Source: Acanthamoeba castellanii str. Neff (taxonomy: Eukaryota > Discosea > Longamoebia > Acanthamoebidae). Taken from it: 64,000 bases of DNA. Position 1 is the first letter of the stretch; the number at the start of each line of letters is the position of its first letter. Location: NCBI RefSeq assembly GCF_000313135.1, contig NW_004457445.1, forward strand, positions 11,955 to 75,954. Direction: 5' to 3'. Under the pieces are notes generated by a model that was not told where the DNA came from, searched no databases, and saw only the letters and a program-made list of their open reading frames with translations. The position numbers and the translations under genes were made by a program. Positions 48,348 through 53,700 of the stretch are shown in pieces.

Positions 48348-50719
48348 TACTTGCGAGAAGAATGGAGCACGAGGTAGTTGTAGTCATTCGAGTAGCTGGT
48401 CGCAAAGTGTGCCCCGGTGGCCGTCTCCACTGCGAGATTGTTGATCTCGTGCAGGACCAACGTGACCGGGCTGGGCGGCTGCTCGCTGGGCTTCTCGTCG
48501 GTCTCCTGCAGCTCCATGTCCTCGGGCATCGTGTTCAGCAGAAGCTGCAGCTTGACCAGCGACACCTGGAGGCGGGCCTCCCGCTGGAAGCTGTTGTCGA
48601 GGTCCTCGCCCGTCCAGTCCAGCCCGCCCAGCAGGATCTCGTTCCGGGCGGTCTCGATCTCCTCCAGCGCGCGGTCGGTCTTGGCGATGCTGGCCTCCAC
48701 CTCGGCGCGCGTCTTGGGCAGCGCCTCGCCCTTCCCTTCGTGTCGACGGGCGGCCTTGCGCTCCTCCTCGTGCACGATGGGCAGGACCATGGCCATGGCC
48801 TCGAGCGGCAGCTTGCCCAGGCCCTTGGCAAACAGGCGACGGGCGTGGTGAAGATAGGTGGCCTTCTCCGAACGGAAGAACTTGTGCAGCAGGAACTGTT
48901 GGTTCGATGGATCGTCAAAGTAAGCGGCGGCGGCGACGACTTCATAAAATGAAAGGAGGAGCTGTGTGCGGTACCACTGCGTAGGCTTGGATGGTGTAGC
49001 GCGCGCTGGCCGAGTAGAAGGCCGGGATGGGGTGCGGCTCAACAGTCGGCTGGCGGCCGAACCTACGCAAGTGAGGGTTGGGGCATCAGCATGCACCACG
49101 ACACGGCGCACTTGTGCAGTCGTACAACGAGAGGGGACTGTGGGAGAGAAAGAAGGAGGACCCGTACCTCGGCTGCGGCTGATTGGCCTTCGCGTCCTGC
49201 TTAGCTTGCCACTCCTTCCTGCTCACCAGGAGGCTCTTGACGTAGGCCAGCGTCTTGTCTGTGACCTGCTGTTCGAACTGGAACCGGACCTTCTCGACCA
49301 GGAACATGGCGTGCGCCGCGTGCAGCTGAAAACAAACACCACCCACCACCAGGCAGGGCCACGTCAGCGTCAAATAATAATAAAGGCGACGCAGCGAGGA
49401 TTGGGTGGCGTACGCTGACGAAGGGCCAAGATGGATTTTCCTTGCTGGCGGAATCGCTGTAATCGTAGGGGCTGGACTTAGTGCCGGGCCAGAAGCCAAA
49501 GCCGCCGTCGTTGTTCTGCATCTTGAGCAGCTTCCGGGCGTCCTTGGCCACCTTCTTCAGCAGCTCGCGCTGGTTGACGCCAGCGAACACATCGCGGAAG
49601 GCCTGGAGCAGCGGCTCGAACACCAGGCTGCTGATGATACGAGACGAGATCTGCTCGCTGCATTCGTACTCGTAGGAGTAGAGGTAGTGGAAGGCGTCGG
49701 AGAGCGAGGTGAGCATGGTCGACGACGCCGTAACCTCGAGCCCACCGAAGCGATCGTGGACGTTGGCCGGCGGCTTGATCAGCTGTACCAGTTCCCTGCC
49801 CTCCAGCTCGCCTACGAGTGGAATGGAAGGAATGTTAGTATTGTGCGAATTCCAGCCAGGACTGCTTGTTGTGTGACGGGTACCGCAGGTGGCAAAGGTC
49901 TCGACCACGGCCGGCTCCTTGAGGGCGATAACGATCCGAGCCGCGTCGTTCTCGGCTCCGAACACGCTCTGGCGCCCGGTCATGGCCACGGCCTCCACCG
50001 TCGCCTCCTTCCCCACGACCGACGCCGCGATCGGGAACAGCACCTCGGCCCTTAAATTGCCTTAAGTGAGCGAAGCGGCTTGCGATGAAGAGTGAGCAAC
50101 GAGTGGCGGCTTTTGCACCTGTTGTTGGCTTCGACTCGCACGCACTTGCCGTGGGCGCCGAGGATCTCGAGATTGTGCACACGCAGAGCCACCCGCACGT
50201 CCACCGGCTCGTCGGTCACGTTGTGCACCACAAACGATTGCGAGTACTGCGGCGACACAAGCCATAGGCCATCAGCCCCACCTGCTCCGTCCGCCCCAAG
50301 CGGCCACAACCTCAAGGAGCGTACCTTGTCGCCCAAAGAAAGGAAGCGGGGAGGAGAGGGGCGCAGCATGATGGGCAGCCGGGCCGTGATCGCCGACTCG
50401 GCGACGCCGAAACGATTGTCGTGCACAGCGATGGCGATAATGCGATACCTGCCGAGAAACACAACACACCAATCGGACAACATGAGCGAGCGCCTACTCA
50501 GGCGACGTGGCATTAACAGATCAGAATAACGTACCGGGTGAGGTTGTCGGGCAGCGCGAAGGAGACGCGGACGCGCCCAGTGTCGCTGGGGACCAGATCG
50601 GGACGGAACACCGCCAGCGGGCGGAAGTCCTCTCGCTTATAGACCGCTCGCGGCATCATCGAGGGATCACCACCGCCCCTGCTCGTGTGGCGAGATGAGG
50701 TGAGTGCGGCACATAAGGC

Positions 50720-50776
<57 letters not shown>

Positions 50777-53700
50777 CCACGAACCGCAGCCTGAGCACGA
50801 GGTGGAGCGTGCTCTCCGGTTGGATGTTGTAGTCGCCGAGCGTGCAGCCGTCCTCGAGCTGCTTGCCAGCGAAGATGATGCGCTGCTGGTCGGGCGGGAT
50901 GCCCTCCATGTCCTGGATGACGTTCTTCAGATCCTCCAGGGTAAACCACGACGCCACCCTTACATCACAGATGTCGCACAATTACGGCTATGTCAGCGCA
51001 CACCGCACAAGTTCCACCCCACCGCAGTTAACTGCTGGATGACATGCGGTGATGTGGTACCCGATGGTCAGGGTCTTTCCGGTGAGTGTCTTCACGAAAA
51101 TGTCGAAGGTGACCATCGAGCCTTTCACCACCGAGCGAGACGACACCATCTGCTCTCGCACAGAAGACCAATGAAAGAAGGAACGGTCAGTTGGGCACAG
51201 GTGACATTGGAAAAAAACAAGGCGGGTTATGTACCTTGAAACACTTGTCCCTGTTCTGGTAGAAGGAGGCGATGGGGTCCTTGACCTTGTAGTCGCTGAG
51301 GAACAGCACGCTCTCGTCCACCGCGTAGAAGGTGCACTCGCAGCCCAGGTTGCCGCCGACCGGAGCGCCGGCGTGGTCGGTGATCATCACATCGACCGTT
51401 GCATTCGCCCTAGAGGGGGGGGGCGAAGACAGAAGGGTCAGAGAGGGCCGACCGATGCCACGAACAGACCAAAGACGCCCATGGGCGCACGCACCCAGGC
51501 TTATAGACGGTGGCGCTGGGCGTGATCTTGAGGCCCAGTCTGGCCTCCGCGGAGGAGACGCTCAGGAACAGGCTCGCTGGGGTGATATACGTAACGGAGG
51601 AGTCCTGATTGGGCACCAGGTTGACTTCCACGTGCACGCCTGCGGGCAATTACAAACACATAAAAAGAGGGGGATTTAAGGGGGCTTCAGGAGGGGCAGG
51701 TGGGTGCAGCCCAGACAAAGCGCTTACCGGGGTAGGACTCGGGGCCGAGAGGCACGGAGATTATCTGGGCCGGCGCGGTGATGGTGACGCGGGACACTTC
51801 GATCTTCCCGTGCTTGGCCACGCTGACGAGGCCTTCAGCAGGCCAGGTCGGCGAATGCACCAACACTCGCGCCGTTTCGCCTTTGTGGGGGGGGGCGTAA
51901 TTTCGATTAGTGTTCTGATCGGCAGCAGCGACAGGCCTTGATAGGGGGCACAATGTACCTGGGCTGTATTCCTCCTTGTCGGCCAGCAGCTTGATCTTTT
52001 TCTCGGTCGACACCTTGGAGCCGGCGGAGGAGTGCGGGAAGACGATCCTGTTGAGGCCGGCGAATGCAAAGACGTTGATCTCCGTGTAGTTGGGACGTCC
52101 CTGCTCGTCCTCCTGTTGTGTGTTACATGCGCCAGTGAGCTCGGCCCGAGCGTCGTCGGTTAAAGAAGGCAAAGTGGGCAAAGTACGATGGAAGCGCTGA
52201 TCAGAACGCGATCGCCTTCGAGCCACGGGCCGAAGTTGACCTCGAACCCCGACTTGCGCTCTTCATCATCAAACTGCAAGGTGACGCTCTGTTTCAGCTT
52301 TTGGCAAGTCTTTTGCTTCCACTCGAGCGTCTCGCCATCCTTCACCCTGCATATTTTTTTAAACCACTCACAATACCAATTAGCACCGCACACACGCACT
52401 ACCGCACGTTGCAAAAGAAAACGCACCACTTCTTTTCAACAGCCTTGAGGTTGACCGTCACGCCCTGCTTACGCTCGCCGTCGATGTCGGTTACGGTCAC
52501 GAAACAGCGGATGGCCTCGCCGGGTCCGTTGAGGACCATCGCGGCAGGCCGCAGGCCGACGTAGAGCGAGGAGGGGTGCAGCAAGATCTTTGAGTCTTTC
52601 GATAGCGACTGGCGGTTGACGTCCTTGAGGGTGGCAACGGCTGTGAGCGACATCGGCGCGGGCGTTTTGCTCTCCTGCTTGCCGGTGATCCTGTTTGTTG
52701 GGGGAAACAAGCGGCGTGAGAATAGACGAGCAACAGAACTCGAGGTTGGGGCAACACGCACTTGATTTGGTGAGTGCCATCACGAGCCGTGGAGCCCTTG
52801 TGCTGCCCCCCAGAACGAGGGAAGCCGGCGCTGGCATTGGAGTTGAATGTGAAGCCCTCCGTGTTCGGCGGCCGATAGGAGGCCGGCGCCCAACCAAGGC
52901 TCCACTCCACCTCAGCTCCAGGCAGCGCACCACCAGTGAAGTACCTGGTGTACCAGGTGGTGTTTGTCAGCCACTCGACGAAAAATGAAAATCGAAAGCT
53001 GGAAGATGTGCGCACTTGGCCTCGGCTTGTACGTTGAGCGGGTCCCCACAGATGTGCGGGCCGGCACCCAGCACCTTGGTGGCCAGCTCAAACTCGGGAT
53101 TTCTGTGTGTGTGGCCACAGCAGGCAGTGTTGAGGATTTGGGGGGGGACAGAAGTGAGCGCCAGTTTGGTCGTACCTGAAGTGCTGAATGTCGACGTCGA
53201 GTTGGTGCTCAACGGTGAGGGTACGTCCAGACTGTGACAGGGTGCGCAGGAGAGTCGGAGAGAAGGCATTGGCGCTCTGTCATGACAGGGAACGATGAGA
53301 ATTCGAAGATGGAGACAAGACCACAGACGGGCGAAGGACGGACCACTTGGGTGAACTTGAGCTTCGCCACGCCGAGCCTAAAGTCCTCCGGAATCTCCCA
53401 CTCCAGGGAAAACGACCCCTGGTCCTCGTCGATCCTCGTCGAATGCATCGACACGTTTTGGTAGTGCGAATTGGCGATCGTCATCACCACCATTCCTGTT
53501 CATTGCAATGACCAATCAGCACATTGATAGTTATTCAAACACGCACCAGCACGCTCACGACATACGACACGATATGACTCGACACGAGACACAACGTATG
53601 GGTGCGCATACCGCCGATTTTCTTGAGGTCGCCGTTCTTCTTGAGCTTGCGAACCCAGCCCTTGACATGAACCACTTCGCCGGGGCGGTAGAGTCCCCGT

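What the first reader, a model, noticed from the sequence alone, without database searches (positions are those of the whole stretch)
50672..51105. Near-complete ubiquitin, ending LRLRGG, sitting in the bait-region position of a macroglobulin
Seen: family blocks FYAVDESVLFLSDYKVKDP before, and ALPDNLTRYRIIAIAVH after, bracket a ubiquitin sequence with conserved I44 patch, K48 and RGG, all in one splice frame. Known: in alpha-2-macroglobulins this segment holds the bait that proteases cleave to spring the thioester trap. Inference: the trap may be triggered by deubiquitinases or ubiquitin-specific effectors of intracellular bacteria, a ubiquitin-decoy defence. I know of no described protein with this layout.
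Basis: partly seen in the sequence, partly recalled or inferred. Interest (0 to 1): 0.92.

Follow-up and report, generated by a model that had tools for sequence, protein, structure and literature searches.

The report
Ubiquitin as bait in intracellular macroglobulin
Acanthamoeba and two related amoeba proteins carry a protease-trap protein whose trigger segment is a complete ubiquitin, which suggests a trap inside the cell that fires when an enzyme cuts ubiquitin.

Summary
On the minus strand (57164 to 46772) lies a 42-exon gene for a ~2300-aa bacterial-type alpha-2-macroglobulin. A complete 76-residue ubiquitin (51107-50672, three exons, one frame) ends LRLRGG-G and fills the bait position, 12 residues before the conserved post-bait R-x-x-F. 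The same layout is in a Balamuthia protein and in a complete ORF of an unnamed EukProt transcript, so a gene-model artefact or nested gene is very unlikely.

In these three, bait ubiquitin is 74-78% identical but its linkers 9-33%; the I44 patch and LRLRGG are invariant and K63 is lost. None has a hydrophobic N-terminus, unlike 18 of 24 bacterial relatives; the CxEQ thioester motif is kept. Two paralogues have no ubiquitin match.

Best reading: a cytosolic trap sprung by cleavage after ubiquitin Gly76. Cleavage, trapping and location are inferred. Published coordinates place a RAS-like GTPase at or beside the same position in a Dictyostelium macroglobulin, so host-protein decoys as baits may recur in amoebae. 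Eight searches of open-licence papers listed none describing this fusion.

The parts
46772..57164 (-). Whole gene: 42-exon alpha-2-macroglobulin with two ubiquitin domains (2302 aa as modelled; 2318 aa with the exon-23 acceptor at 51880)
   Evidence: Gene model; NCBI Neff protein P0031, 100% identical over the searched region
56700..57164 (-). N-terminal ubiquitin-like domain (exons 1-3), tail LRLAESG without GG; no hydrophobic N-terminus
   Evidence: Pfam ubiquitin E 5e-14, residues 25-92; tails compared; hydropathy
51235..51409 (-). Exon 25: macroglobulin block FYAVDESVLFLSDYKVKDPIASFY just before the bait
   Evidence: alignments
51061..51149 (-). Exon 26: N-side bait linker (MVSSRSVVKGSMVT) and ubiquitin residues 1-15 and part of codon 16 (from 51107)
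50785..50958 (-). Exon 27: end of codon 16 to part of codon 74 of the ubiquitin, including the I44 patch and K48
   Evidence: own-genome ubiquitin search hit G000:C122:62738-62920
50535..50678 (-). Exon 28: end of codon 74 and G75-G76 of the ubiquitin (50678-50672), C-side linker GDPSMMPRAVYK, then REDF and the start of the A2M domain
50672..51107 (-). Complete ubiquitin domain in the bait position (introns 50959-51060 and 50679-50784, the latter with a CA repeat)
50119..50678 (-). Exons 28-30, holding the A2M domain (PF00207) that follows the bait
   Evidence: E 1e-16
49651..49662 (-). Thioester motif C-S-E-Q within exon 32
   Evidence: (C1678, E1680, Q1681 of P0031 invariant in 13 of 13 sequences)
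46772..47591 (-). Exons 39-42, holding the bMG10 domain
   Evidence: PF17973 E 2.4e-32

Best explanation
It is a cytosolic alpha-2-macroglobulin trap whose flexible bait has been replaced by a folded ubiquitin. A ubiquitin-specific protease binds the I44 patch and the LRLRGG tail and cuts after Gly76. This breaks the chain 12 residues before the conserved post-bait plug (R-x-x-F), lets the plug retract, collapses the molecule and exposes the CxEQ thioester, which then bonds to the protease. Shown here: the fusion, its conservation in three proteins, its position, the intact ubiquitin surface and tail, the thioester motif, and the lack of a hydrophobic N-terminus. Inferred: cytosolic location, cleavage by deubiquitinases, trapping, and a defence role against intracellular microbes. 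The N-terminal ubiquitin-like domain, which cannot be cut at a GG, would be a targeting or docking module.
For: Position and length match the bait of relatives. Three orthologues keep L8, I36, D39, R42, I44, Q49, H68, V70 and L71-G76, and Gly at P1'. Bait ubiquitin is 74-78% identical against 9-33% in its linkers, 34-35% in the preceding macroglobulin part and 43-47% after the bait. The N-terminal ubiquitin-like domains of the same three proteins end LRLAES, LRLRNA and LRLSSD, so the GG tail was kept only where cutting would matter. CxEQ present, no hydrophobic N-terminus in 3 of 3. The stretch after Gly76 is predicted disordered (block mean pLDDT 48-50), hence probably accessible. In human A2M the bait sequence is replaceable and a break in the chain is what triggers collapse (PMC9352918: abstract, discussion and one results section read). 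A predicted ubiquitin-specific protease of the Acanthamoeba symbiont Amoebophilus asiaticus is upregulated early in infection (PMC8831229, passages).
Against: No cleavage, trapping or localisation data; only three sequences. Host deubiquitinases should see the same site, so the trap could fire constantly unless the site is shielded in the native form. K48 is I in Balamuthia and R54 varies, so ubiquitin is not perfectly preserved. Extending the bait of human A2M favours the collapsed form; whether a folded domain avoids this is unknown. Skipping exon 27 stays in frame.
Confidence: 0.45

Rival explanations
1. Maturation: the amoeba's own deubiquitinases cut after Gly76 during or after synthesis, as in ubiquitin-ribosomal protein precursors. 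The mature protein would be two chains, the first ending in a free ubiquitin Gly-Gly that could itself be conjugated.
For: Peptide-linked ubiquitin followed by Gly in 3 of 3. Processing of natural ubiquitin fusions by host deubiquitinases is established (recalled). All residues of the tail are kept.
Against: Cutting the bait is what fires a macroglobulin (PMC9352918), so constant cutting would waste the trap. K63 is lost in 3 of 3, though this says little about use as a donor.
Confidence: 0.2
2. Docking: the ubiquitin is a binding handle, not a cleavage site. Ubiquitin receptors (proteasome, autophagy receptors) recognise it, perhaps only after the trap has changed shape, and remove the trapped cargo. 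Ordinary proteases would cut the linkers.
For: The I44 patch is intact; linkers are predicted disordered and are variable, as bait sequences usually are. A second ubiquitin-like domain already sits at the N-terminus.
Against: Binding alone does not need R74-G75-G76, yet all three keep LRLRGG while their N-terminal domains lost it.
Confidence: 0.2
3. Tamper-proof plug: ubiquitin is used because it is very stable, so the trap ignores general cytosolic proteases and fires only when a strong unfolding protease destroys it. Its ubiquitin identity would not matter.
For: The insert is predicted to fold as an independent domain; cleavage inside a disulfide loop does not fire human A2M until the disulfide is reduced (abstract).
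Against: Does not explain why surface and tail residues needed for ubiquitin recognition are kept.
Confidence: 0.08
4. Artefact: a gene-model error or a ubiquitin gene nested in the macroglobulin gene.
For: Gene models of this intron-rich gene do contain errors (exon 23 acceptor).
Against: Same fusion in a Trinity transcript ORF and in Balamuthia; removing exons 26+27 breaks the frame; bait ubiquitin lacks its own Met1 here (F).
Confidence: 0.02

Closest known systems
Bacterial Type I alpha-2-macroglobulin (E. coli YfhM, Salmonella A2M; long COG2373/YfaS-type proteins of bacteria)
   Different: Bait is a folded ubiquitin; extra N-terminal ubiquitin-like domain; no hydrophobic N-terminus (18 of 24 Met-starting bacterial relatives examined have one).
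Dictyostelium DdiCPRas2 (PMC2430557, findings section read)
   Same: A eukaryotic host-type domain inside a COG2373/A2M protein. cpRAS lies at residues 2844-3013, between A2M blocks ending about 2771 and starting about 3158 of 3933; the 776 residues after it compare with 834-863 (3 amoebal) and 708-757 (24 of 25 bacterial in which the motif was found) from the post-bait R to the C-terminus, which puts cpRAS at or beside the bait position.
   Different: Insert is a circularly permuted RAS-like GTPase, not ubiquitin. The section read does not discuss the bait.
Ubiquitin-ribosomal protein precursors and polyubiquitin
   Same: Ubiquitin peptide-linked through Gly76 to a following protein.
   Different: Here ubiquitin is internal, without its own Met1 in A. 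castellanii and Balamuthia, diverged (58, 62 and 65 of 76 identical to the A. castellanii polyubiquitin unit), inside a protease trap.
Tabula rasa / engineered-bait human A2M (PMC9352918)
   Same: Bait replaced without loss of function; chosen sequence is meant to set which protease fires it.
   Different: Laboratory construct of glycine and serine with short sites; here a whole folded domain occurs naturally.
Plant NLR integrated decoys (recalled)
   Same: A host protein targeted by pathogens is built into a defence protein as bait.
   Different: No NLR; the output would be covalent trapping.

Membership tests
Alpha-2-macroglobulin family, bacterial Type I | Array of macroglobulin domains incl. 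MG2, bait-region domain, A2M and MG10 | tested here: met
   Pfam MG2 E 8.7e-9, A2M_BRD E 1.5e-6, A2M E 1e-16, bMG10 E 2.4e-32, all above curated cut-offs; bMG3 and bMG5 below cut-off
Alpha-2-macroglobulin family, bacterial Type I | CxEQ thioester motif | tested here: met
   C1678, E1680, Q1681 of P0031 invariant in 13 of 13 aligned; CSEQ, CNEQ, CSEQ in the three amoebal proteins. The motif, not the bond, was tested.
Alpha-2-macroglobulin family, bacterial Type I | Bait segment between the bait domain and the R-x-x-F post-bait plug | tested here: met
   110/113/111 residues against 70-112 in 29 bacterial relatives
Alpha-2-macroglobulin family, bacterial Type I | Bait is a flexible, broadly cleavable stretch | tested here: not met
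   76 of 110 bait residues are a folded ubiquitin, block mean pLDDT 93-95 over residues 21-80 of the 111-residue fragment; only the linkers are disordered. This is usual for the family rather than what defines it.
Alpha-2-macroglobulin family, bacterial Type I | Exported from the cytoplasm | tested here: not met
   Best 10-residue hydropathy in the first 45 aa 0.41, -0.04, 0.19; hydropathy proxy, no signal-peptide predictor. Usual, not defining.
Alpha-2-macroglobulin family, bacterial Type I | Protease cleavage of the bait triggers trapping | not testable with these tools
   Needs protein
Ubiquitin | Ubiquitin fold | tested here: met
Ubiquitin | I44 patch and LRLRGG tail | tested here: met
   Invariant in 3 of 3
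Ubiquitin | Chain-forming lysines | tested here: inconclusive
   K6, K11, K27 kept in 3 of 3; K48 in 2 of 3; K33 in 1; K29 in 1; K63 in 0
Ubiquitin | Released and conjugated to targets | not testable with these tools
   Needs protein
Integrated-decoy defence proteins | A pathogen enzyme acts on the built-in host-protein copy | not testable with these tools
   No cleavage data; symbiont ubiquitin proteases known only from paper passages

The most novel reading that the evidence does not exclude
Amoebae turned bacterial macroglobulins into cytosolic sentinels by replacing the bait with folded copies of host proteins that intracellular microbes attack: ubiquitin in the Acanthamoeba-Balamuthia lineage, a RAS-like GTPase in Dictyostelium. 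An enzyme that cuts the decoy is covalently trapped. This would be integrated-decoy immunity with a protease trap as the output.
Probability: 0.3. Interest if true: 0.95.

Novelty: new variant of a known kind. Interest (0 to 1): 0.87.

Why it matters
The macroglobulins in the papers I saw act in plasma or the periplasm, with a bait that many proteases can cut (passages of PMC3328433 and PMC5764988; sections of PMC9352918). A conserved, apparently cytosolic one whose bait is ubiquitin would be a natural reporter and trap for deubiquitinase activity, and directly testable with purified protein. It would link macroglobulin biology to ubiquitin biology, give amoebae a candidate cell-autonomous defence against bacteria that manipulate ubiquitin, and show that a folded domain can serve as a bait, an idea close to the structured loops and interaction-based triggers that the discussion of PMC9352918 suggests for engineering. 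Engineered ubiquitin baits could become inhibitors or sensors of deubiquitinases.

Tried and rejected
Nested or misassembled ubiquitin gene: rejected. Recent copy from polyubiquitin: rejected. The bait ubiquitin differs from the genome's polyubiquitin unit at 18 of 76 residues, and A. castellanii and Balamuthia share A18, W20 and L26 against that unit (E, S, V), which points to descent from one ancestral insertion. Pairwise dN/dS against 6 canonical repeats: dN 0.19-0.21, dS 0.69-0.87; that path includes the highly conserved canonical branch, so it is only weak evidence.

More fusions: three protein searches (the best 120 listed of 1967, 1275 and 239) gave ubiquitin plus macroglobulin in 3, 3 and 0 listed rows, the same three proteins (P0031, P0106, P0108). 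Hits below the listed rows were not seen, and allowed only proteins of about 480-1526 aa. Paralogues: C78 (L021) and C94 (L022) have charged low-complexity stretches before the post-bait motif by eye, and neither contig is among the 66 ubiquitin matches; their exons were not modelled. The window gene was missed by the A2M and bait-domain genome searches, probably because introns split those domains. The whole-protein genome search scored 20 of 69 candidates and did not find the two paralogues, so it says little about divergent copies.

Structure job 1 (413 aa) had mean pLDDT 72.9 and pTM 0.49 and folded the ubiquitin part poorly, probably because bacterial baits were aligned to it; it was used only for the macroglobulin match. 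The native complete trap could not be modelled (size limit). Transfer from bacteria was not tested with a tree. In PMC7235994 the 'macroglobulin' passage concerns cancer stem cells.

Print searches: on open-licence PMC papers only. They listed 4, 7, 9, 12 (of 129), 7, 1, 0 and 0 papers. I judged the lists by title and start of abstract; of these papers I looked inside PMC7235994, PMC2430557, PMC4209131 (abstract and section list) and PMC11323580 (two matches, both in its reference list). Subscription journals and preprints were not covered.
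Full report
What is there. The gene runs from 57164 (ATG) to 46772 (stop) on the minus strand. A Viterbi splice model based on codon usage and splice sites, without protein comparison, gave 43 exons and put the ubiquitin in frame. It was seeded with five coding pieces picked by eye, one overlapping exon 27, and then re-estimated. Two boundaries were adjusted by eye to give 42 exons and 2302 aa, and a third by comparison with the orthologues (exon 23 acceptor at 51880, giving 2318 aa). 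The own-genome search placed the window in a 38.4 Mb, 250-contig assembly. The public protein P0031, 'Alpha2-macroglobulin domain containing protein' of Acanthamoeba castellanii Neff (2317 aa), is 100% identical over the region searched; it is a prediction too and differs from my model in several other exons, so it is not independent proof.

Domains. Pfam finds, above curated cut-offs: ubiquitin (residues 25-92), MG2, the bait-region domain, a second ubiquitin (82 bits, E 2.7e-23, 1-72 of 72), A2M and bMG10, besides the related Rad60-SLD model on both ubiquitins; bMG3 and bMG5 are below cut-off. The internal ubiquitin occupies 51107-50672 across exons 26, 27 and 28 and is complete, not near-complete. 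The splice between exons 27 and 28 falls in the codon of R74 and joins G75-G76 to G-D-P-S.

It is not an artefact. Two orthologues carry the same layout: P0106 of Balamuthia mandrillaris, labelled 'Polyubiquitin' although 2383 aa long, and P0108, a 2376-aa ORF, labelled complete, of a Trinity transcript in EukProt whose species is not given. Of five skips tried, leaving out exon 26, exons 26+27 or exons 26-28 breaks the frame; leaving out exon 27 alone or exons 27+28 does not, so an isoform without most of the ubiquitin remains possible.

Position. In an alignment with 29 bacterial relatives (my selection from the rows listed) the conserved Y before the bait and R after it bracket 110, 113 and 111 residues in the amoebae and 70-112 (median 89) in the bacteria. 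A bacterial relative, P0121, aligns with E. coli YfhM in blocks that stop at YfhM residue 892 and resume at 932; the ubiquitin aligns with the part of P0121 in between. So ubiquitin replaces most of the bait rather than adding to it, and 12 residues separate G76 from the R of R-x-x-F (10-13 across the three, from the sequences). In human A2M the post-bait segment threads a central channel, and its retraction after cleavage is proposed to trigger collapse (PMC9352918; abstract, discussion and one results section read).

What selection kept. Pairwise identity among the three: bait ubiquitin 78, 74, 76%; N-side linker 23, 14, 9%; C-side linker 10, 33, 10% (over only 10-12 positions); N-terminal ubiquitin-like domain 55, 54, 51%; macroglobulin part before the bait 35, 34, 35%; after it 47, 43, 45%. 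Bait ubiquitin keeps L8, I36, D39, R42, I44, Q49, H68, V70 and L71-R72-L73-R74-G75-G76 in 3 of 3, with Gly next; K63 is P, Q and R; K48 is K, I and K; R54 is C, R and Y. The N-terminal ubiquitin-like domains of the same three proteins end LRLAES, LRLRNA and LRLSSD. This internal contrast is the best sequence argument that the GG tail of the bait copy is used, which fits cleavage better than binding. Three sequences are few, and the contrast does not prove cleavage.

Where it works. The amoebal proteins have no hydrophobic N-terminus (0.41, -0.04, 0.19 on a 10-residue Kyte-Doolittle window), while 18 of 24 Met-starting bacterial relatives exceed 2 (25 were examined, one not starting with Met). 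No signal-peptide predictor was available. With a ubiquitin-like domain at the N-terminus, a cytosolic location is likely, so contact with deubiquitinases is possible.

Controls in the same genome. Two other A2M-type loci (C78, C94) have charged low-complexity stretches before the post-bait motif by eye, and neither contig is among the 66 ubiquitin matches, which the tool calls a lower bound. Ubiquitin thus seems a feature of one gene, not of amoebal macroglobulins in general. The whole-protein search hit this locus and ubiquitin repeats elsewhere, but missed the two paralogues.

Distribution. Among the best 120 rows of each of three searches only three proteins combine ubiquitin with macroglobulin. 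Of the other macroglobulin rows, those that carry an organism name are bacterial or soil-metagenome entries, with Pyrinomonadaceae, Blastocatellia and Myxococcota among them; many rows carry no name. Bacterial origin of the gene is therefore likely but no tree was made.

Mechanism. The favoured chain of events is: a ubiquitin-specific protease docks on the intact surface, cuts after G76, the post-bait plug retracts, and the thioester (CSEQ, CNEQ, CSEQ) bonds the enzyme. Each of these steps is inference; what is shown is that the surface, tail, plug motif and thioester motif are present. The strongest objection is that host deubiquitinases would cut the same bond. Either the native fold shields it, or the cut is part of maturation (rival 1), or the trap regulates host enzymes. 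The ecological case rests on papers: Amoebophilus asiaticus carries two predicted ubiquitin-specific proteases, one upregulated early in Acanthamoeba (PMC8831229, passages), and the start of the abstract of PMC12591485 in a search listing says Simkania possesses numerous deubiquitinases.

A parallel. PMC2430557 describes DdiCPRas2 of Dictyostelium, in which a circularly permuted RAS-like GTPase (2844-3013) interrupts a COG2373/A2M protein between blocks ending at about 2771 and starting at about 3158 of 3933. The 776 residues of the last block compare with 834-863 residues from the post-bait R to the C-terminus in the three amoebal proteins and 708-757 in 24 of 25 bacterial ones (the motif was not found in one). 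By this arithmetic cpRAS sits at or beside the bait. I could not fetch the sequence, and the section read does not mention the bait. If true, folded host proteins have become macroglobulin baits twice in Amoebozoa.

Novelty. Eight literature searches of open-licence PMC papers listed none that, by title and start of abstract, describes ubiquitin in a macroglobulin bait (one search listed 12 of 129). The family is known; the bait, the apparent location and the likely trigger are new.

Noticed in passing
56700-57164 (minus): A second, N-terminal ubiquitin-like domain without a GG tail, conserved in all three orthologues.
   Followed up: yes
P0106: The Balamuthia orthologue is named 'Polyubiquitin' in NCBI although it is a 2383-aa macroglobulin.
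   Followed up: yes
51880 and 57087-57116: P0031 seems to miss an upstream exon-23 acceptor (adds ETARVLVHSPTWPAE, matching the orthologues) and the first strand of the N-terminal ubiquitin-like domain.
   Followed up: partly
Dictyostelium DdiCPRas2 (PMC2430557): A RAS-like GTPase seems to sit at or beside the bait position of another amoebal macroglobulin.
   Followed up: partly
L021 (C78) and L022 (C94): Two further A2M-type genes with charged stretches at the bait position by eye; that of C94 is strongly K/M/E-rich.
   Followed up: partly
about 50721-50774: A CA-repeat microsatellite lies in the intron that splits codon 74 of the ubiquitin; variable length there could affect splicing of exon 27.
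   Followed up: no
57393-57547 and 23618-23680: Masked N runs, the first just upstream of this gene's start.
   Followed up: no
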